A stretch of DNA of 37,911 bases, from positions 1-37,911 of the IMG/VR virus record IMGVR_UViG_3300046691_000158. One strand, written 5' to 3'. This DNA comes from a virus. The notes below the pieces were generated by a model. The model ran no database searches. It saw nothing but the letters and a program-made list of their open reading frames with translations, and was not told the origin of the DNA. Each line of letters opens with the position of its first letter. The first letter of the stretch is position 1. Made by a program: the position numbers and the translations under genes. Shown piece after piece: positions 12,996-33,162 of this stretch.

Positions 12996-13017
12996 AGTTT
13001 TATGTCATCTGTTCACT

Positions 13018-13230
13018 ATGGCGAAGGATGACCCACAGTTCAATTTACGGATTCCGCTGGATCTCCGAAGGAAAATTTCGGCCGCGGCCAAGGCGAACAG
13101 TCGTTCCGTTACCGCTGAAATTAATCACCGCCTGGAATCGACGTTTCTTGCCGACGAGCCTTCAGAAGTTGCTGCGCTCCACGAAATCATCGATCGCGCA
13201 AATTTGCTGTTGAGGCATTTCAAAGCCTGA
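13018..13230 (+). CDS. Arc-like ribbon-helix-helix DNA-binding protein
   Basis: A 70-residue Arc-type regulator: a beta strand PQFNLRIPLDLRRKI, then helix AAAKANSRSVTAEINHRLEST, the classic ribbon-helix-helix order in which the strand enters the DNA major groove of a dimer. A C-terminal helix (EVAALHEIIDRANLLLRHF) may mediate oligomerisation. It probably represses its own promoter, whose region holds nested inverted repeats. In P22, Arc represses the antirepressor in an immunity locus, so a role in the lysis-lysogeny choice is plausible. A second member of the family lies at 13872-14129. The start is ATG 13018. Confidence 0.8.
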   Translation: MAKDDPQFNLRIPLDLRRKISAAAKANSRSVTAEINHRLESTFLADEPSEVAALHEIIDRANLLLRHFKA

Positions 13231-22421: not shown

Positions 22422-22640
22422 CTATTTCCTGCACGCCGCATCCGCGCGGCACTGCTTATTGTTCGATGAGATGGCCGGTCCTGCTAGCGCGTCCTGTGAC
22501 GCCGCCCTTGCCGCCTCTGGGCTTTGGAAGCGGACGAACTGATACCCGCTGCCATTAATCGCAGGCTTCGTCTGGCAGCCCGCTATCACGCATGAAAACA
22601 AGGCAACGATCGCGATCCGATAGCTTGCGGAAATTCGCAT
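22422..22640 (-). CDS. Rz1-like outer-membrane spanin (nested)
   Basis: A 72-residue lipoprotein: signal region YRIAIVALFSCVIAGC with lipobox I-A-G-C (Cys 22 would be lipidated), then a polar mature part of about 50 residues ending CRADAACRK. Its start, ATG 22640, lies within the i-spanin gene in another frame (86 bases shared), the classical Rz/Rz1 arrangement. It has a GGAGA site 8 bases upstream. It would anchor in the outer membrane and bind the inner-membrane spanin across the periplasm to fuse the membranes at lysis. Less Pro-rich than lambda Rz1; otherwise convincing. Confidence 0.85.
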   Translation of the reverse strand: MRISASYRIAIVALFSCVIAGCQTKPAINGSGYQFVRFQSPEAARAASQDALAGPAISSNNKQCRADAACRK

Positions 22641-22812
22641 TGTTCTTCTCCAAATTGTCGATGCGCGCGAGGGCTTCCTTGGCTGCCTCTGCCTGAACCG
22701 CCGCGCGCCCCTCGCTGCGGCCGATCCATTTGGCAGGGTAGAAGACGAGGACAGCGCCAATCGCCGCCCCTGCCCCGAGCTTGACGAGATCAAAGACGCC
22801 GAGCCCGAACAT
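22555..22812 (-). CDS. Rz-like inner-membrane spanin
   Basis: An 85-residue protein with an N-terminal membrane helix (LVKLGAGAAIGAVLVFYPAKWI, about 8-29) followed by a periplasmic coil (EGRAAVQAEAAKEALARIDNLEKNNANFRKL) and a short Cys-bearing end (DRCLVFMRDSGLPDEACD). It is encoded directly after the holin candidate, with the o-spanin nested in its end. The pair completes lysis by disrupting the outer membrane. ATG 22812 shares its A with the upstream TGA; an in-frame GTG one codon earlier is possible. Confidence 0.85.
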   Translation of the reverse strand: MFGLGVFDLVKLGAGAAIGAVLVFYPAKWIGRSEGRAAVQAEAAKEALARIDNLEKNNANFRKLSDRDRCLVFMRDSGLPDEACD

Positions 22813-23024
22813 CACTTCGCCGCCATGTTCTTGGCCATCGTTTCGGCCGTCAGCATCCAGCTCTTCACGAGGAGCCCGAGGAGGTTGAGACCGCCGACAA
22901 TCTTGAGAGCCTGCTCGGCAGTGAAAAATGTCAGCCAGTCAAAGCCGATGAGACCGGCGATCAGCACGCCGACGAAGGTCGCGAGGTAGTTCAGGCCGTT
23001 GGTGAGTGTCGAAGCGGATGGCAT
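22812..23024 (-). CDS. Holin candidate
   Basis: A 70-residue hydrophobic protein: polar start (MPSASTLTNGLN), a first membrane helix (YLATFVGVLIAGLIGFDWLTFF, about 13-34), a short turn (TAEQALK) and a second helix (IVGGLNLLGLLVKSWML, about 42-58), ending in a polar tail. Size, two membrane helices and position between endolysin and spanins fit a class II-type holin that would open the inner membrane for the endolysin. ATG 23024 overlaps the endolysin stop by ATGA. The long frame upstream is antisense-like and rejected. Confidence 0.75.
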   Translation of the reverse strand: MPSASTLTNGLNYLATFVGVLIAGLIGFDWLTFFTAEQALKIVGGLNLLGLLVKSWMLTAETMAKNMAAK

Positions 23025-23872
23025 CAGGTGGTAGCCTCCGCGATACTGGCCTTCTTGCGACGGGCATAGAAGCCATAGGCCAACCCACCGACCGTAAGGA
23101 GAGCTGAGAGGATGACCAGACCGGCCACCACGCGGCCCACAAGCTCGCTGGAGTAGCTGAGAGGCATAAGCTGGTCCTGCACCTGCTGAAGCGTGACAGC
23201 GAGGCCACCAGAGGCAACGCCGCCGCCTGTCGCCGCGTCTGCTACTGCCGGCGATGGAGCGGCCTTGATGTCGGAAGCATATGCCTTGTGTGCTGGCGGC
23301 GGCTCGCCAAACCCGGCGAATGGCAATGGCGCGGGTTGCCCGGTTGCCCACGCCTGCCCCGTCGCCTTCACGTCAGCGATGCGATATGCCCAGCCTCGAC
23401 CAAACGTCGGCCACGTCTTCAGCTTCTTCATGAAGGCCAGACGATGCGCCAGGATATCGGCAATGAGCTGATCGTGGTTCGGGTGGTTGTTCGCCGCGGC
23501 GATGGTCGCAGGGCCGACGATCCCATCTGCATTGACGCCGAGCGCGCGCTGCAGCCAGAGGACCGACTGCTTGACACCAGAGTTCACGTTGCCATCGAAG
23601 ACGACGTAGGAGACGCCAGCCGGGAACTTGTCGAGGCGTGCCGTGTTCCAGTAGCTGGAGCGGTAGATGTCCTCAAGCTCGGACTGGTCGATGTAGCGGA
23701 CGCTGCGCTTCTGTTTGCCTTGGCGCTCCCGGTAGGCATCATAGACGCGCTGGGTTACACCCTTCATCGTGGCTCCACCGGGGTCGGCCGGGTGATTGCT
23801 ATAGCCGCCTTCGCTCTTCAGCACCTTGGCGAGAGAACGCGCAAATTCCTTTGCTGGGTCGATGACCGGCAT
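23024..23872 (-). CDS. Endolysin (GH108 muramidase with C-terminal membrane helix)
   Basis: A 282-residue peptidoglycan hydrolase. The N-terminal GH108 domain has the family motif SEGGYSNHPADPGGATMKGVTQ-type start (catalytic E21), then SYWNTARLDKFPAGVSYVVFDGNVNSG. A peptidoglycan-binding-3 like part follows (LQRALGVNADGIVGPATI, then MKKLKTWPTFGRGW). After a Pro/Ala-rich linker the protein ends in a membrane helix (about 247-269, VAGLVILSALLTVGGLAYGFYARRKK). The C-terminal anchor is uncommon and could keep the enzyme at the inner membrane until the holin acts. ATG 23872 is complete; the gene follows the spike by 42 bases. Confidence 0.9.
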   Translation of the reverse strand: MPVIDPAKEFARSLAKVLKSEGGYSNHPADPGGATMKGVTQRVYDAYRERQGKQKRSVRYIDQSELEDIYRSSYWNTARLDKFPAGVSYVVFDGNVNSGVKQSVLWLQRALGVNADGIVGPATIAAANNHPNHDQLIADILAHRLAFMKKLKTWPTFGRGWAYRIADVKATGQAWATGQPAPLPFAGFGEPPPAHKAYASDIKAAPSPAVADAATGGGVASGGLAVTLQQVQDQLMPLSYSSELVGRVVAGLVILSALLTVGGLAYGFYARRKKASIAEATT

Positions 23873-25173: not shown

Positions 25174-26154
25174 ATGACATTCCCAATGAAGACTGTGCTG
25201 GTTGCAAACAAAACATATGAAATCAGCGGTCTAAGTGAGACTGACGTCTATTTCAGCATGATATCCGATCATTTCGAGGCTGATTTCCCGAGGCTGGCCC
25301 GTCGTCTCATCCGAGAAGACTATGTCTGCCTCGACATCGGCGCGAACATCGGCATGAAAAGCTTGGTGATGGCGCAGGTGGCCCATGCGGGCAAGGTTAT
25401 TGCCGTTGAAGCGGCCCCGAACGTTTCGGCTATCTTGGAGATGAACATTAAGGCAAGCGGCGAGACAAACATCTCAGTCGCCAAATGCGCGATCAGTGAT
25501 ACTGATGGTGAGGTCGCGTTTGTGGAAGATTCCGCATTCGGCCATATCGGCGGCGATGGGGGGAAAGTAACCGCAAAGACCATTAAGACGCTGCTAGAGG
25601 ACCATGACTTGAGCCGGCTTGACTTTGTCAAGATCGATGTCGAGGGGTTCGAGTATCCAATCCTCAAGAATGCTATCGCGACGATTAACCAGCACCGAGC
25701 ACTGCTACTGCTGGAGTTCAATTCGCTGTGTCAGATGGTGCACGCCGATGTTTCACCGAAAGAATTCGCACAATGGCTCCTAGCGTCGTTCGAGTTCGTT
25801 TTTGTTGCTCGGACTGCGCCGGACGGGCACACAGAACTCGAACGTATTCACGCTGACGGGACGACACGCCTCCTCTATCTGAACTTGGCCAAAGATGGGT
25901 CAGTTACCGACATCATCGCCACCAATGCTCCGGAACGATTTATTCCATACATGGATGATATGGAACGCGGCATCAAGGAAAGGGAAGCAGAGGCGAAACG
26001 GAATTTTGACTCGGATATCGCCGTCGCCCGCACGGAGATCGCCGTTGCCCGCGCGGAAATCGAGAGCTTGAAATCAGAACTACAGGCCTTTCAGAACACG
26101 ACATCCTGGCGGCTTACCGCCCCGCTTCGCGCCATAAAGAAAGCGTTTCGATAA
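25174..26154 (+). CDS. FkbM-type methyltransferase with O-antigen-type C-terminal tail
   Basis: A 326-residue SAM-dependent methyltransferase. The motifs are CLDIGANIG (about 52-60, SAM-binding), VIAVEAAPN (75-83) and FVKIDVEGFE (about 151-160), the FkbM/Methyltransf_21 set that methylates sugar hydroxyls. A coiled coil (about 270-306, EIAVARAEIESLKSELQAF) and the ending NTTSWRLTAPLRAIKKAFR follow, a tail common in bacterial O-antigen and polysaccharide assembly enzymes. It lies against the direction of the late operon, with 143 bases of upstream space and a hairpin at its end, so it is probably expressed on its own from the prophage and alters host surface polysaccharide. ATG 25174 has AGAAGGG upstream. 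Confidence 0.85.
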   Translation: MTFPMKTVLVANKTYEISGLSETDVYFSMISDHFEADFPRLARRLIREDYVCLDIGANIGMKSLVMAQVAHAGKVIAVEAAPNVSAILEMNIKASGETNISVAKCAISDTDGEVAFVEDSAFGHIGGDGGKVTAKTIKTLLEDHDLSRLDFVKIDVEGFEYPILKNAIATINQHRALLLLEFNSLCQMVHADVSPKEFAQWLLASFEFVFVARTAPDGHTELERIHADGTTRLLYLNLAKDGSVTDIIATNAPERFIPYMDDMERGIKEREAEAKRNFDSDIAVARTEIAVARAEIESLKSELQAFQNTTSWRLTAPLRAIKKAFR

Positions 26155-27430: not shown

Positions 27431-28729
27431 TTAGTATAAACCTTTCCCACCCGATGCCATAGCGCGGGAGAATTGACTGGATTGGTTGGAAACGGATCGC
27501 CCGTAATCCGTTAGTTCCCCATTGCCGCGTGACTGGCTCTGCGGCTTTTCGGGAAACTGGCCACCGAACAGGCCTCCGGGTTTGGTGACAGCAGGGCCAA
27601 GAAGGCCACCGAGAACAGCGCCACCGGGGCCGAGCGCAAGACCGCCGAGGACTGCGCCAAGGATGCCAGCGCCGAGCTGCTTGCCCTTCCCGCCGAATGC
27701 CGGGGCCTTGTTGAATGGCTGCTGGTCGAGGTAGGCGCGCTGCGCGGATACCGCCTGCTGCTCTTGCGGGGATAGGAGCCCGCCAGGTTGCCCCATCGAA
27801 GGCTGTGCGTTGAATGCTGGAGGCTGGACGGCTGCGGTATTGATCGATGCAGGCTCGGCAGCCCCAGTTACCATTGGGTCTGGCTGCTGCATTGCCGCAT
27901 AGGCCGGATTGTCGATCGACGGGAGGATGCCAGCATTTAGCTGCTGGTCTAGCAAGCCACGGCGAAGGGCGTTCTGACCCGCAGCCGCTTGCGTTGGATC
28001 TGCAAAGCGGGACTGGTCAAACGGGGTTGCGAACCTGTCGTATTTCAGATCGGGGACGGTCTGCATATTGGGTTTAGCTGATGCCATGTCTACGTCCTTC
28101 AGGGGAGAGCGCTGGACGGAAGTGAGAGGAGAGCTGTAGGCGGCGTATTCCTGCGGGCTCACCGGTTGGGGAGCGTTCAGGATGCCCGCGATGTCAGGGG
28201 CTGGCGTCGGGGTCGGGACATTCGGAATGTCCGCCATCGGGGTGTAGCTGTTCAGCAGGCCCGCACTGACAGGGTTCCCGTAGGCATCCGTCACCTTGCC
28301 GGGGCGATAGCCTTCGACGCGCTGCATCGAGTCAAGCAGCGTGCCGCGCTGGTCTTCATTTAGGGCTGACAGAGGCGTATCGGGGGTGACACCAGCATCT
28401 CGCGCTATGCGGCTGTAATAACCCTGAGTGTTGTTCTCAAAGCTTGGGGCATATTGGCTGATGGCGCCGGAAATGGTTTTGTCCGCATATTTCGGGCTTT
28501 CGAACAGAAGGCTTTGCTGCGCCTGACGTCCAGCGTCATAGGACGGGAAAACAGCAAAGCGCCCATCGGTCCCGACAGCCCCCTTTGACTTGGCGAAATC
28601 ACGATACTCAAGATTACCTGGGTTGTTATTCCGCCAGTTTCTTGTGCCACTCAGGGTATACGTGTTACCATCTGCCGCGCGCACCTGTGTCCATCCCGGA
28701 CCAGCCGCGACTACCTCACGGATTTCCAT
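27431..28729 (-). CDS. Virion-associated muralytic ejection protein
   Basis: A 432-residue protein. The N-terminal domain has RNNNPGN (33-39) and GTDGRFAVFPS (53-63), then QQSLLFESPKY, the signature of phage structural transglycosylase-like domains (PRD1 P5/P7-like annotation). It would cut peptidoglycan during DNA entry. A long Pro/Gln-rich middle follows, then a glycine-zipper membrane stretch (GAGILGAVLGGLALGPGGAVLGGLLG, about 348-373) for a trans-envelope channel. ATG 28729 shares a CATG palindrome with the divergent 28728 plus-strand gene. It is one of several ejection proteins in the region. Confidence 0.75.
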   Translation of the reverse strand: MEIREVVAAGPGWTQVRAADGNTYTLSGTRNWRNNNPGNLEYRDFAKSKGAVGTDGRFAVFPSYDAGRQAQQSLLFESPKYADKTISGAISQYAPSFENNTQGYYSRIARDAGVTPDTPLSALNEDQRGTLLDSMQRVEGYRPGKVTDAYGNPVSAGLLNSYTPMADIPNVPTPTPAPDIAGILNAPQPVSPQEYAAYSSPLTSVQRSPLKDVDMASAKPNMQTVPDLKYDRFATPFDQSRFADPTQAAAGQNALRRGLLDQQLNAGILPSIDNPAYAAMQQPDPMVTGAAEPASINTAAVQPPAFNAQPSMGQPGGLLSPQEQQAVSAQRAYLDQQPFNKAPAFGGKGKQLGAGILGAVLGGLALGPGGAVLGGLLGPAVTKPGGLFGGQFPEKPQSQSRGNGELTDYGRSVSNQSSQFSRAMASGGKGLY

Positions 28730-28970
28730 GCGCTACCTCGTTGCTTTTCTGATGATTTCGTCCGCCGCAATGGCCGATGATCTAGACGCTCTCAAAGAGC
28801 GTTATTATGAGAACCGGCAGGCTTGCCGAGAAGGTTATGCGGGCGACAAGCAATTGAGCCCCGCCGAGTCAGACAAGGCTTGCGGCCAGCTTGAGCGGCT
28901 TTCTGTCGTGCTCAAGAAGTCCCACCAGTGCTGGGATAAGTCGGAACTCGTTTGGAGCCCTTGCAAGTGA
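28728..28970 (+). CDS. Secreted four-cysteine protein
   Basis: An 80-residue protein with a signal peptide (MRYLVAFLMISSAAMA, cleavage expected after AMA) and a mature part of about 64 residues with four Cys (ACREGY, KACGQL, QCWDKS, SPCK) able to form two disulfides in the periplasm. ATG 28728 is the middle of a CATG whose other strand starts the muralytic gene. It overlaps the next gene by GTGA. Oriented against the late operon, this is probably a lysogeny-expressed accessory gene acting in the envelope, possibly against superinfection. No family recognised. Confidence 0.65.
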   Translation: MRYLVAFLMISSAAMADDLDALKERYYENRQACREGYAGDKQLSPAESDKACGQLERLSVVLKKSHQCWDKSELVWSPCK

Positions 28971-29155
28971 ACGATCACAAATTCTCTAAGAACGTTGACC
29001 TTCACGAAAGCGAATGGGCCAAGGCCGGGAAGAAAGAGCCTATCTTTGGCCCCGGCGCCTACTGGTTCTTCAACGTGACGTTGCCGACTTTGGCTGTTGC
29101 CGTTGTTCTAGGACTCATCTCGAAGTTTATCTGGCGCGCTGTGCTTGGCTACTGA
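28967..29155 (+). CDS. Single-pass membrane protein, partner of the four-Cys protein
   Basis: A 62-residue protein. The polar N-terminus (HKFSKNVDLHESEWAKAGKKEPIFGPG) is followed by a membrane helix (YWFFNVTLPTLAVAVVLGLISKFIWRAVLGY, about 31-57). GTG 28967 overlaps the preceding TGA; a TTG five codons earlier is possible. Two coupled genes, one exported and one in the inner membrane, suggest an envelope unit such as superinfection exclusion. The 3' end overlaps the convergent 29127-30791 gene by 29 bases. Confidence 0.6.
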   Translation: MNDHKFSKNVDLHESEWAKAGKKEPIFGPGAYWFFNVTLPTLAVAVVLGLISKFIWRAVLGY

Positions 29156-30791
29156 GAGCGCTGGATAGAGACCCGATCAGCGGAACAGTCTTGTTGGTGA
29201 TGGCCTTCAAGACGGGCGCCTGACCCGTCGCGGCAGCGTTTCGAAGAGCGCTGAAGCCGCCAACTGCCGCACGGTCAGCTATGTTAGCCGCTCCGAACCC
29301 GACAATGCCTGGAGTGGCCATCCCCACGGCAGTGCCGACCGGCCCGAAGGCGGAGCCAAGGAGCCCACCAACTGCCGATCCAGCTCCAGTAGAGACAACG
29401 CCACGTGGGGCGAACTTTCCAAGCCAGTTTACGACCTTTGGCGTCATTTGGCCTTTGGCGAGCTGGCGGATAAGGGAAACCTCCTCCCCCGTAAAGCTCT
29501 TCTCCTTGCCCTTCACAATCTGGGTATAGAGTTGAGACGCCTTTTCGCGGATCGCGTTCTGCATGCCCGATTGAGAGTATTTGGCCGATTTCACGTCTGC
29601 CAGGTCGAACAGATCTTCAATCTTTTGAGCCTTGGCACGCTTCGCCCAAAGGGAATTTGCATCTTTGAATGTCTGGAAGCCGCCGACGTTGCCCGTCACA
29701 TCTGCCTGTGAGGCGTTATCGGAAAACCCATCGAGGATCTTCTTGACGTTCATCAGCGCGCGCTCGTCTTGCGGCTGCGCATTCTTCATGGCGAGGCCAA
29801 TCTCTTGGCGAATCTCATGGAAGCGCTGCAGCGTCAAGGGCTGACCTTTGAGAGCCTGCACATCCTCAATTATGCCCATGGTATTTGGGCGAAGACGCTC
29901 ATTCGGCCGGCCAGCCGCAAACGTCATGTTATTGATGAGCTTGTCTGTGGTCTGCGGCTTGATGACGATGCCTGCCTGGTCGGCCTGCTGGTAGAGAGCC
30001 TGTGCAGAGGTTGTCAGATCGTCGATGCTTGGAGCGTTCGCAACAGATGCCTTGCGGGCCGCTCTCGATGCAAGAGAGTCACCGACTTTTGACGCAAGAG
30101 CGCCTGTTCCGAACCCAAGAGCGCCGCCGACGAGAGCGCCAGTTGTGCGATCACCTGGCTTTGCCTCGCCTGCGCCAGTCAAGCCACCGTAGGCCATACC
30201 TTCAAGCGCGGCCCCACCTGTGCGTCCGATGACTGGGATTGAACGACCGGCAAGCGTTGCGCCTGTTCCTGCAATAGTTCCGCCCGTCGCAAGCCCACCA
30301 GCAAGCTCGCCGCTAGTCGACGCTATCGGGTTTTGCTGGCGCATGGCCGTCTTTTTGGCGTCTTCCTGCTGCTGGGCTGTCGCATAGTCGGTATTGCCCG
30401 CAAGACTACGAGCACCAGCAACCGCCTCATCATCCCAGCCGAATAGTGGAGCACGCTGAGCACCGGAGGCGAAAGCATCGATCGACTTCGCGACAGGCCC
30501 GAGCGGGTTCATGCTGCCGGCGTAGATGCCACGGCTATAGAAGTCGTCTCGTTTGGCCTTGGCGTCTTCCACCTGCTTGGCATCGAGCGCCGTGGCTGGG
30601 TTCTGCGTCATGTTTGACAGGCTGGCGGCAAGATCCTGAGTGTCGGCGCTTGTGGTGCGCAGATCCTGCGTAGCAGGACTGTCCGTAGGGCCTCCGAAGG
30701 TTTCGCGCATGGCATTGGCCATAACGTCGTCTGGCGTCCCGTCAGGAAACTCAACGATTGAACCGTCTGGCGCAGCGATCTGAACCGGCAT
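29127..30791 (-). CDS. DNA ejection (internal virion) protein
   Basis: A 554-residue protein with a short beta-like N-terminus (VQIAAPDGSIVEFPDGTPDDVMANAMRET, as in many phage internal proteins), a charged middle, and glycine-zipper hydrophobic stretches (GELAGGLATGGTIAGTGATLAG; GALVGGALGFGTGALASKVG; VVSTGAGSAVGGLLGSAFGPVG) that can insert in membranes. Long helices separate them. It is encoded with the 30791-31936 and 31937-32761 genes, matching the cluster of ejection proteins (P22 gp7, gp20, gp16) by position. It probably leaves the head with the DNA and forms the channel through the host envelope. Confidence 0.7.
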   Translation of the reverse strand: MPVQIAAPDGSIVEFPDGTPDDVMANAMRETFGGPTDSPATQDLRTTSADTQDLAASLSNMTQNPATALDAKQVEDAKAKRDDFYSRGIYAGSMNPLGPVAKSIDAFASGAQRAPLFGWDDEAVAGARSLAGNTDYATAQQQEDAKKTAMRQQNPIASTSGELAGGLATGGTIAGTGATLAGRSIPVIGRTGGAALEGMAYGGLTGAGEAKPGDRTTGALVGGALGFGTGALASKVGDSLASRAARKASVANAPSIDDLTTSAQALYQQADQAGIVIKPQTTDKLINNMTFAAGRPNERLRPNTMGIIEDVQALKGQPLTLQRFHEIRQEIGLAMKNAQPQDERALMNVKKILDGFSDNASQADVTGNVGGFQTFKDANSLWAKRAKAQKIEDLFDLADVKSAKYSQSGMQNAIREKASQLYTQIVKGKEKSFTGEEVSLIRQLAKGQMTPKVVNWLGKFAPRGVVSTGAGSAVGGLLGSAFGPVGTAVGMATPGIVGFGAANIADRAAVGGFSALRNAAATGQAPVLKAITNKTVPLIGSLSSALSSQAQRAR

Positions 30792-31936
30792 TATTCAATC
30801 CTTCCAGTTGCGGGATTGTACTTGCGGATGCCCGCGGCACCTGCCGGGGCGGTCGTAGCGGGACCACCGGATGGTGCCGATGCGCCGACGCCGAAGTTAC
30901 CCTGCGCCTGCATCTGAAGCTTCTGAACGCCTGACTGAACAGCGTCGTTGAAATCATCGAGGGCGTCGTTGAAGTCTTTGACGTCCTGCGCCTGCTCCAT
31001 GCGTGCAACGGCTGCGTCGGCTTTCTTGCCTTCGAAATCCGTGATCGGGCCACCGCCCTTGAGCATCTGACGAGCGCTCAGGAACGAGCCGCCCTTAAGC
31101 TGATCGATCTTCGCTTGAGCCCGGATAGGCCCGGATCGGAAATTCGGCGTTCTGGAATCGATAGGTCCAAGAACGTCGGGCAAGGATGGGTCTGCCTTGA
31201 GTTCTGCAATCTGCTGGTCAATCTGGCCCGCGATCTGCTGCGCGGGCAGGAGAGCCGTCGCAGCTTCTGCCTGGGACTTTCCAAGACCAGTCAGGTTAGC
31301 TGCACCCGTGAGATCCTTCGGCTGCGAGTAGACAGGGTTCCCGAACTTATCTCGGCCTTGGATAGACGTGCCGAGATCCACGCCCGTTACCGTTGGCGTA
31401 GGCGTTATGCCATCCGGGAATTTCATTTGATTGACGGAACCGTCCTTCCCAGGCTGGAAGAGAACCGGGTTGCCTTGGGCATCCCTCGTCCAGATCGGTT
31501 GAAGGCCATATTCTCCGCCGCCTGGGCCAACAGGCTTTGCGGCCTTCCCAAGTGGCGTGAATTGCTGAGTATCTGGATCAGCAAACCCATAGGTGCCGTC
31601 AGCCAAGCTTTGGAACTGTGCCGGGTGATCTGCCTTTAGTTTCTGCTGGTATGCCAGCTTGAAGGCGTCTCCCGGTCCCATAGCGCCGCTTGATACCGCT
31701 TCGGCAAGATCGGGGTTGTTCTGCTGCAGATATTGCAGGGTCTTGTTGTAGGTCTTGGCGTCTGTTCGGTTATTGGCAAAGTTGGCCGCAGCCTGCCCAA
31801 CCTGATCTTGTGCGTTTTTGCCGCTGAGAAGGCCGAGGCCCACGCCGAGGAGAGCGCTTGAGTTGTTGAACGGCGTGTCGTTGCCGGCGAAGAATGAGGG
31901 CAGCGTTTTGTTGCCGAAGGTCGGGAAAATAGCCAT
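30791..31936 (-). CDS. DNA ejection (internal virion) protein
   Basis: A 381-residue protein. Near the N-terminus is a hydrophobic Gly/Leu stretch (SALLGVGLGLLSG), followed by an Asn/Gln-rich helical part (AANFANNRTDAKTYNKTLQYLQQNNPDLAEAV), a Pro-rich middle and a helical C-terminal half (AQQIAGQIDQQIAELKADPS; VARMEQAQDVKDFNDALDDFNDAV). The low-complexity composition is typical of proteins packed in the head and ejected. Its start follows the upstream stop directly and its stop shares a base with the next start. The role comes from position in the ejection block. Confidence 0.65.
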   Translation of the reverse strand: MAIFPTFGNKTLPSFFAGNDTPFNNSSALLGVGLGLLSGKNAQDQVGQAAANFANNRTDAKTYNKTLQYLQQNNPDLAEAVSSGAMGPGDAFKLAYQQKLKADHPAQFQSLADGTYGFADPDTQQFTPLGKAAKPVGPGGGEYGLQPIWTRDAQGNPVLFQPGKDGSVNQMKFPDGITPTPTVTGVDLGTSIQGRDKFGNPVYSQPKDLTGAANLTGLGKSQAEAATALLPAQQIAGQIDQQIAELKADPSLPDVLGPIDSRTPNFRSGPIRAQAKIDQLKGGSFLSARQMLKGGGPITDFEGKKADAAVARMEQAQDVKDFNDALDDFNDAVQSGVQKLQMQAQGNFGVGASAPSGGPATTAPAGAAGIRKYNPATGRIE

Positions 31937-32761
31937 TTAGAAACTCCCCAAGAGACCAAGGCCGGTAGTCCCATATCCCAGCGCAGTGAGGAAGGGATTT
32001 TGTCCAGGCTGTGACGTTGTCTGCGTAGAACCAAGCTGGCCTGCACCTGACGCAATGGCATTCAGGCGAGAAAGATTCTCCCAGGGGCGTGTCTGCTGGT
32101 CGTTGAAAATGCGGAGACGGTCGTTGAGCTGCTGCGTCGACCAGTTGTCATGGAACGCACCGGCTTTCGCGAGATCGTTGACGGGTGCCGACATCCCTTG
32201 ATACGCAGCCCCAAGATTGCCGATGCCTGTTTGGCCCATGTTGAACAGGTTTGAGTTCGCCGCATCCTTGCGGCTCTGCCATGCCTGATACTGGCGCGCT
32301 CCCAGATCACCGATCGTATTGCCGAGTAGCTGCTGATTGGTTCCAGAGCCATATCTGCCAGCGGCAGACGCGTTCCCGTTGACGGAATTCGTCGCCTGAT
32401 CGATGACTTGCTTGAAACCGGGGTCTTCGTTGATGTTGAACGAGCTGTTCGCAACATTCTGCGTATTCTTGAGGGCAGCAAGTTGGGCAGGATTGTAACC
32501 GCCGCTGTTGATGACGCTCTGATATTGACCGGAGAGGCCGCGGCCACCAATGTTTTGATACCCGATCCTGTTCGACTCATCAGCGGCGGCGCGGGAATCC
32601 CATGACGGGTCTGCAAATGTCTGCCCCGTATAGATCTGCGCACCGGTGCCATTGTTGTATAGCCTCGTGGCCTCAGATATGCCCTGCTGTAGCGCTGGCT
32701 GTGCACCGGGCCATGGCCCCGAGTTGGTTGTCTGTGTCGTCTGCTTCGAACTGCCGGTCAT
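31937..32761 (-). CDS. Structural/ejection protein, Asn/Gln-rich
   Basis: A 274-residue protein. It opens with a polar, Thr/Gln-rich stretch (MTGSSKQTTQTTNSGPWPGAQPALQQGI), then repeated Asn/Gly segments (RLYNNGTGAQIYTGQTFADPSWDSR; YGSGTNQQLLGNTIGDLGARQYQAW) and a short hydrophobic end (FLTALGYGTTGLGLLGSF). It is likely part of the internal or tail-tip complex. ATG 32761 overlaps the preceding stop by ATGA; the long upstream frame is rejected because its first 47 residues are Arg-rich and antisense-like. Confidence 0.6.
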   Translation of the reverse strand: MTGSSKQTTQTTNSGPWPGAQPALQQGISEATRLYNNGTGAQIYTGQTFADPSWDSRAAADESNRIGYQNIGGRGLSGQYQSVINSGGYNPAQLAALKNTQNVANSSFNINEDPGFKQVIDQATNSVNGNASAAGRYGSGTNQQLLGNTIGDLGARQYQAWQSRKDAANSNLFNMGQTGIGNLGAAYQGMSAPVNDLAKAGAFHDNWSTQQLNDRLRIFNDQQTRPWENLSRLNAIASGAGQLGSTQTTSQPGQNPFLTALGYGTTGLGLLGSF

Positions 32762-33162
32762 ATGCTCACCTCGTACGTGGTGCGTAGTTTCTTCGCGTCG
32801 GGGAAAAGCTTCGCCCAGCCGTCTCGTCCTTCGGCGACGAAGCTCGTCGCGCCGCCTTCTCTCGCCATGTTCGCGATGTATTCCCGTGCTGCCGGCAGCC
32901 ATTCGTTGACGCCGTCACCGACGATTCCGAGGCAGCGCATCACCGTTTTCGCTGTCCACTTCTGGAACTGCATGATCAGGATCGCCTTCGGGCCTTCGTC
33001 ATTGAAGGCGACCACGCAGAAGGCGCTCCCAGACCGGCAAATCTGCCAAAGCTCGCCGGACGAGATATCGCCGCCCGTCCGGTCGCAAGCCGCTTGCAGG
33101 CGTGCGGAGAACCGAGGCCAGAGCGCATCGACCTCCGCCGCATTCGCTATGCCTATCTTCAT
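32758..33162 (-). CDS. GNAT-like small virion protein (T7 gp13-type)
   Basis: A 134-residue protein with an acetyltransferase-like fold pattern: KIGIANAAEVDALWPRFSARL (first helix), CVVAFNDEGPKAILIMQFQKW (central strands), a helical part (AAREYIANMAREGGATSFVAEGR) and a closing beta segment (KLFPDAKKLRTTYEVSI). Small proteins of this type, like T7 gp13, lie among podovirus structural genes and are needed for virion assembly rather than for catalysis. I do not see a clear acetyl-CoA loop (Q/RxxGxG/A). ATG 33162 overlaps the previous stop by ATGA and the next gene by ATGA; the upstream frame extension is rejected. Confidence 0.6.
   Translation of the reverse strand: MKIGIANAAEVDALWPRFSARLQAACDRTGGDISSGELWQICRSGSAFCVVAFNDEGPKAILIMQFQKWTAKTVMRCLGIVGDGVNEWLPAAREYIANMAREGGATSFVAEGRDGWAKLFPDAKKLRTTYEVSI

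What the first reader, a model, noticed from the sequence alone, without database searches (positions are those of the whole stretch)
28728..29155. Two-gene envelope cassette on the opposite strand of the late operon, with a CATG-shared start
A signal-peptide protein with four Cys (28728-28970) and a membrane protein (28967-29155) run against the late operon. The first start codon and that of the muralytic ejection gene are the two strands of one CATG, so there is no intergenic space; the promoter must lie inside the neighbouring coding sequence. Plus-strand genes inside a minus late operon are usually lysogeny-expressed morons. A secreted disulfide protein plus a membrane partner suggests superinfection exclusion or envelope modification. 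I recognise no family.
Basis: partly seen in the sequence, partly recalled or inferred. Interest (0 to 1): 0.75.

Follow-up and report, generated by a model that had tools for sequence, protein, structure and literature searches.

The report
Antisense envelope genes beside phage-ejection genes
Two small genes for cell-envelope proteins, read against the phage's virion genes, sit exactly where Salmonella phage P22 keeps its gene for blocking rival phages; relatives carry different small envelope genes in the same spot, so this is probably a new set of proteins with which a dormant phage shuts out its competitors.

Summary
Both plus-strand ORFs exist at the stated coordinates, the first start shares one CATG with the muralytic gene, and both evolve as real genes. 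The 62-aa membrane protein (P0002) has 12 close relatives, including an unannotated copy in Rhizobium phage RHph_N3_2, plus four remote ones. The secreted four-Cys protein (P0001) has six phage or prophage relatives lying head-to-head with a muralytic virion gene.

Among 33 loci with this ejection gene, 30 carry an antisense hydrophobic ORF at its 3' end: P0002 (17), an unrelated membrane family 'TM2' (12) or a third type (1). None carries one at the 5' junction. P22 sieA occupies the same place and strand, and three relatives also have P22-like Arc/Mnt and antirepressor genes there.

Best explanation: a prophage-expressed superinfection-exclusion slot. P0002 would act like SieA or T4 Imm at the inner membrane (inferred). 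P0001 may act like T4 Spackle on the incoming virion muramidase (inferred, weaker). None of the proteins is detectably homologous to SieA, Imm or Spackle, and no function was measured. The two genes are separable: window and L014 share P0001 but have different membrane partners. Lysis and random-ORF readings are unlikely.

The parts
28728..28970 (+). P0001: 80-aa secreted four-Cys protein; proposed periplasmic half of the exclusion cassette
   Evidence: homologs in L014, L032, L121, L148, L149, L123, L170
28967..29155 (+). P0002: 62-aa membrane protein with the DLHESEW...KKEPxxGPGAYWFFNVTLP motif; proposed inner-membrane exclusion protein in the sieA position
28727..28730 (.). CATG shared by the start codons of P0001 (+) and the muralytic gene (-)
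28640..28727 (+). Possible overlapping regulatory region: 5' codons 1-30 of the muralytic gene with reduced synonymous change between window and L014
   Evidence: p 0.004; no sigma-70 match in the scan
27431..28729 (-). Muralytic virion (ejection) protein, N-terminal RNWRNNNPGN lysozyme-like domain; proposed target of P0001
   Evidence: PHROG 873 'endolysin' E 6e-22; PDB 7q47 Enc34 endolysin E 1e-11 by profile, Z 9.7 by fold
29127..30791 (-). Ejection/structural protein whose 3' end defines the antisense slot
   Evidence: PHROG 21712; census of relatives
30791..32902 (-). Two further ejection genes (30791-31936 PHROG 2534, 31937-32902 PHROG 4287)

Best explanation
The pair is a lysogeny-type superinfection-exclusion cassette in the P22 'sieA slot', antisense to the 3' end of an ejection-protein gene of a temperate phage. 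P0002 sits in the inner membrane and blocks DNA delivery by related phages at the stage of the ejection-protein conduit, as SieA does. P0001 is exported to the periplasm, folds as a small disulfide-bonded helical-hairpin protein and, in the more specific part of the hypothesis, binds and inhibits the muralytic domain of the incoming ejection protein, as Spackle does to T4 gp5. Shown here: both are conserved genes; the slot recurs; its content is variable but envelope-directed; P0001 pairs with muralytic genes. Inferred: expression in the lysogen, the exclusion phenotype and both molecular targets.
For: Coding and conservation. Slot census: antisense hydrophobic ORF in 30/33 loci at the ejection gene's 3' end, 0/33 at its 5' junction; families P0002 (17) and TM2 (12) were found only there. 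P22 has 7-20-16, then sieA antisense 22 bp after 16, then mnt, arc, ant; relatives L171, L170 and L032 have Arc-like repressors and ORF6N/AntA antirepressors in the same region. SieA is a single inner-membrane protein whose escape mutations map to the gene 16 and 20 ejection proteins and which exists as three types under 30% identical (PMC10883804). P0001 lies head-to-head with RNWRNNNPGN-type muralytic genes in window, L014, L032, L121, L148 and with SleB-type ones in L149 and L123. In slot loci, 3/3 of this muralytic type versus 1/29 others carry P0001 (p 8e-4). Spackle is a 75-aa helical disulfide periplasmic inhibitor of the T4 tail lysozyme, acting beside Imm (PMC7677548).
Against: No expression or exclusion data. 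No detectable homology of P0002 or TM2 to SieA, of P0002 to T4 Imm, or of P0001 to Spackle. P0001 belongs to a wide family of periplasmic domains also found in bacterial genomes, many in no evident phage context, so inhibiting phage muramidases cannot be the role of all members. P0001-muralytic pairing could be physical linkage. In L170 a P0001 relative is about 6 kb from the slot and not beside a muralytic gene.
Confidence: 0.6

Rival explanations
1. Lysogenic conversion without exclusion: the proteins change the envelope of the lysogen (stress tolerance, surface properties) and merely occupy a tolerated antisense insertion point.
For: P0001 has relatives in bacterial genomes in no evident phage context; slot content is variable.
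Against: The slot is tied to the ejection module in all loci; two membrane families were found nowhere else in the searches; the sieA/immI architecture is matched.
Confidence: 0.22
2. Lysis or virion-related function: P0002 is a holin or antiholin, P0001 a spanin-like or virion-packaged protein.
For: Small membrane plus secreted protein near late genes.
Against: A lysis set is already present on the late strand: endolysin 23024-23872 (PHROG 315), with a holin-like ORF and Rz/Rz1-like ORFs (read from the sequence) at 22422-23351. The pair is on the opposite strand; no lysis family match.
Confidence: 0.06
3. P0001 is a protective partner of the neighbouring muralytic protein (immunity for the producing cell or a folding aid), not an exclusion factor.
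For: Head-to-head linkage with muralytic genes.
Against: Antisense to the late operon, so probably not co-expressed with it (inference); the muralytic protein is packaged rather than exported (family knowledge); P0002 would remain unexplained.
Confidence: 0.08
4. Chance open frames on the antisense strand.
For: Small ORFs; none annotated in RHph_N3_2.
Against: Purifying selection in the gene frame, positional conservation in more than 20 loci.
Confidence: 0.01

Closest known systems
Phage P22 sieA / immI region
   Same: Antisense gene directly 3' of the last ejection gene of a temperate phage; inner-membrane product; in relatives accompanied by Arc/Mnt-like repressors and an antirepressor.
   Different: No homology of P0002 or TM2 to SieA; 62 aa with one hydrophobic segment instead of about 160 aa with three TM domains; a secreted partner precedes it; in the window the slot lies between ejection genes, with no mnt/arc/ant between them.
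Phage T4 sp (Spackle) and imm
   Same: A small exported, disulfide-bonded protein plus a small membrane protein; a virion muramidase is available as target (PMC7677548).
   Different: No homology; AF2 model is a helical hairpin plus beta-hairpin with no significant fold match; T4 sp and imm are about 6 kb apart in a lytic phage.
HK97 gp15, Tuc2009 Sie2009 and TP-J34 Ltp exclusion proteins
   Same: Small prophage-encoded envelope proteins thought to block DNA injection (as cited in PMC10883804).
   Different: Known only from that citation here; long-tailed phages; homology not tested.

Membership tests
P22 SieA-type superinfection exclusion | Sequence homology to SieA | tested here: not met
   hhalign of A1 and A7 against P22 SieA: probabilities below 1%
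P22 SieA-type superinfection exclusion | Gene antisense at the 3' end of an ejection gene in a temperate phage | tested here: met
P22 SieA-type superinfection exclusion | Inner-membrane protein | tested here: inconclusive
   One hydrophobic segment by hydropathy only; location not measured
P22 SieA-type superinfection exclusion | Blocks DNA injection; escape mutations in ejection genes | not testable with these tools
   needs a plating assay
T4 Spackle | Sequence homology | tested here: not met
   hhalign of A6 against T4 Sp: probability 1%; no PDB sequence match
T4 Spackle | Spackle fold (compact helical bundle) | tested here: inconclusive
   AF2 model from 3 sequences (pLDDT 84) is helical hairpin plus beta-hairpin; no significant Foldseek match, best VIA Z 5.8 to unrelated proteins
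T4 Spackle | Exported small disulfide protein | tested here: inconclusive
   Signal-peptide-like N-terminus and four Cys conserved in six phage/prophage sequences, as expected; export and disulfides not measured
T4 Spackle | Inhibits the virion muramidase | not testable with these tools
   needs binding and activity assays; linkage to muralytic genes is circumstantial
T4 Imm | Sequence homology | tested here: not met
   hhalign of A1 against T4 Imm: probability below 1%
Phage lysis proteins (holin, spanin) | Match to a lysis family or membership of the lysis cassette | tested here: not met
   No family match for P0001/P0002; separate lysis cassette at 22422-23872
Known anti-phage defence families (PADLOC) | Match to a PADLOC model | tested here: not met

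The most novel reading that the evidence does not exclude
A family of temperate phages of rhizobia and their relatives keeps an exchangeable exclusion slot inside its ejection operon. Several unrelated inner-membrane blockers (P0002, TM2 and others) pair with periplasmic inhibitors (P0001) matched to the muralytic domain of the adjacent ejection protein, so that exclusion specificity is inherited and swapped together with its target.
Probability: 0.3. Interest if true: 0.8.

Novelty: new variant of a known kind. Interest (0 to 1): 0.58.

Why it matters
If right, it adds at least three unnamed protein families (P0002, TM2, P0001; no match in the family libraries where tested) to superinfection exclusion, which for short-tailed phages is characterised mainly for P22 SieA. 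It also gives a positional rule: small antisense genes at the 3' end of ejection genes, sometimes missed in annotation. The P0001-muralytic pairing makes a concrete prediction, a prophage inhibitor of the incoming virion muramidase, testable with two purified proteins.

Tried and rejected
Rejected: random ORFs (selection and synteny); lysis genes; homology to SieA, Imm or Spackle. Strict one-to-one pairing of P0001 with the RNWRNNNPGN domain was dropped because L149 and L123 pair it with SleB-type genes. Fold searches with the P0001 model gave no significant PDB or BFVD match; the Foldseek list for the muralytic domain was noise and only VIA-align brought up 7q47. The tblastn hit of the L032 protein in MF417929 is chance. 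tblastn of P0001 in phage records found nothing. A relation of the ejection protein to P22 gp16 was not significant, nor was P0002 to TM2. The sigma-70 scan found no promoter. An A6 scan of viral contigs was not possible. Literature searches for a description of this slot found none in the held library.

Full report
OBSERVATION. P0001 (28728-28970, ATG, 80 aa) has a signal-peptide-like N-terminus and four Cys. P0002 (28967-29155, GTG, 62 aa) has a hydrophilic N-terminal half and one hydrophobic segment. CATG 28727-28730 gives the ATG of P0001 and, on the other strand, the ATG of the gene 27431-28729. P0001 ends and P0002 starts in one GTGA, and P0002 runs 29 nt into the 3' end of the minus gene 29127-30791. 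The neighbours are ejection-module genes: 27431-28729 matches PHROG endolysin/virion families, and 29127-30791, 30791-31936 and 31937-32902 match virion or DNA-ejection families. The phage is temperate (integrase) and has an endolysin elsewhere on the late strand, next to ORFs that look like holin, Rz and Rz1 (read from sequence).

REAL GENES. tblastn of P0002 finds a 63% identical copy in Rhizobium phage RHph_N3_2 (MN988526 13014-13199 minus), in the same slot and not annotated. IMG/VR gave 11 loci, with 30 invariant residues among 12 aligned sequences, and a Rhizobium ecuadorense contig carries one. Over ten phages mean pS is 0.56 and pN 0.10 in the gene frame, a contrast no other frame shows to that degree. 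P0001 has a 78% identical relative in L014 (dS 0.55, dN 0.17; p 6e-4) and a 34% identical one in L032. Others are in L121, L148, L149, L123 and L170. The four Cys are shared by the six aligned.

THE SLOT. Taking the ejection gene as anchor (alignment A4), 33 loci were examined. At its 3' end 30 have an antisense ORF with a strongly hydrophobic stretch; at its 5' junction none does, the genes there usually being butt-joined. The loci are related, so the Fisher p (2e-15) overstates independence. All 30 fall into recognisable kinds: P0002 family (17, including remote members in L152, L170, L171 and L172 that keep D-L-x-x-[ST]-E-[WYF]...EP[FI]), a family named here TM2 (12; alignment A7) and the distinct 44-49 aa ORF of L014 (assignments). 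A separate collection scan with TM2 returned 15 loci, every one antisense at the ejection gene's 3' end. Additional signal-peptide or lipoprotein ORFs occur in the slot of L143, L144, L146, L148 and L153 (by eye).

MODULES. In window and L014 the DNA is alike through P0001 and diverges right after the GTGA overlap (90% identity in 28900-28949, then 64, 36, 39 and 16%), so one P0001 is joined to two unrelated membrane proteins. In L121, L148 and L149 the membrane gene beside the ejection gene is TM2. The usual order is ejection gene, membrane protein (antisense), secreted protein (antisense), muralytic gene.

P0001 AND THE MURALYTIC GENE. The N-terminal domain of 27431-28729 is related to the Enc34 endolysin catalytic domain 7q47 (profile E 1e-11; Z 9.7, 113 residues, rmsd 2.5; model pLDDT 89). 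P0001 relatives are head-to-head with genes carrying this domain in five phages (window, L014, L032, L121, L148) and with SleB-type genes (PF07486) in two (L149, L123). Within the slot census 3 of 3 independent loci with this domain have P0001, against 1 of 29 others (p 8e-4). Linkage alone could cause this. L170 has a P0001 relative elsewhere in the prophage. Many members of the wider family lie in bacterial genomes in no evident phage context, and those scanned have no Pfam model.

STRUCTURE. The AF2 model of P0001 (three sequences, pLDDT 83.6) is two helices and a beta-hairpin. No significant match was found in PDB or BFVD. This neither supports nor excludes a Spackle-like fold.

COMPARISON WITH P22 AND T4. 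In P22 the order is 7-20-16, sieA antisense 22 bp after 16, mnt antisense, arc and ant sense, then gene 9. In L171 the ejection gene is followed by an antisense P0002 relative, further small membrane ORFs, an antisense Arc-family gene, and a sense Arc-family gene and ORF6N antirepressor. L170 has two Arc-family genes and an AntA antirepressor, and L032 an ORF6N/KilAC antirepressor with RHH-like ORFs. So the slot corresponds in position and company to P22 immI. SieA blocks DNA injection at the ejection conduit and has three dissimilar sequence types (PMC10883804). T4 pairs membrane Imm with periplasmic Spackle, an inhibitor of the tail lysozyme (PMC7677548). No sequence homology to any of these was found, so the claim is 'works like', not 'is a'.

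MECHANISM AND CONFIDENCE. Shown: genes, slot, variability, association with the ejection module. Inferred: lysogenic expression, inner-membrane location of P0002 and interference with the ejection conduit (about 0.6 for exclusion by at least one of the two); P0001 as inhibitor of the incoming muralytic domain (about 0.35). Reduced synonymous change in the first 30 codons of the muralytic gene (p 0.004) fits overlapping start signals for P0001; no sigma-70 match was found, which means little for an alphaproteobacterial host.

VERDICT. A real, conserved and hitherto unnamed antisense envelope locus; new variant of a known kind.

Noticed in passing
window 25174-26154 (+): FkbM-type methyltransferase gene (PF05050, E 1e-16) with a C-terminal coiled-coil-like tail, also antisense to the late operon; a candidate surface-polysaccharide-modifying moron.
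   Followed up: no
L002 (MN988526) 13014-13199 (-): P0002 homolog in Rhizobium phage RHph_N3_2 that is not annotated in GenBank.
   Followed up: yes
L110-L119, L155-L164: Wide alphaproteobacterial periplasmic four-Cys family (AC...L...G(W/Y)C(Y/W)...W..C) related to P0001, without a Pfam model where tested.
   Followed up: partly
L003-L013, 5' part of the muralytic genes: The N-terminal part of the muralytic ejection gene next to P0002 is exchanged between phages (several unrelated N-termini) while P0002 stays.
   Followed up: partly
L034 3559-3897 (-): A different secreted Cys-containing protein opposite an RNWRNNNPGN-type muralytic gene, possibly an unrelated counterpart of P0001.
   Followed up: no
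L142, L146, L153 slot ORFs: TM2 proteins begin with an (I/E)EHDP(D/G)EFRR-like motif reminiscent of the P0002 motif, and their conserved C-terminus overlaps the ejection gene's 3' coding end on the other strand.
   Followed up: no
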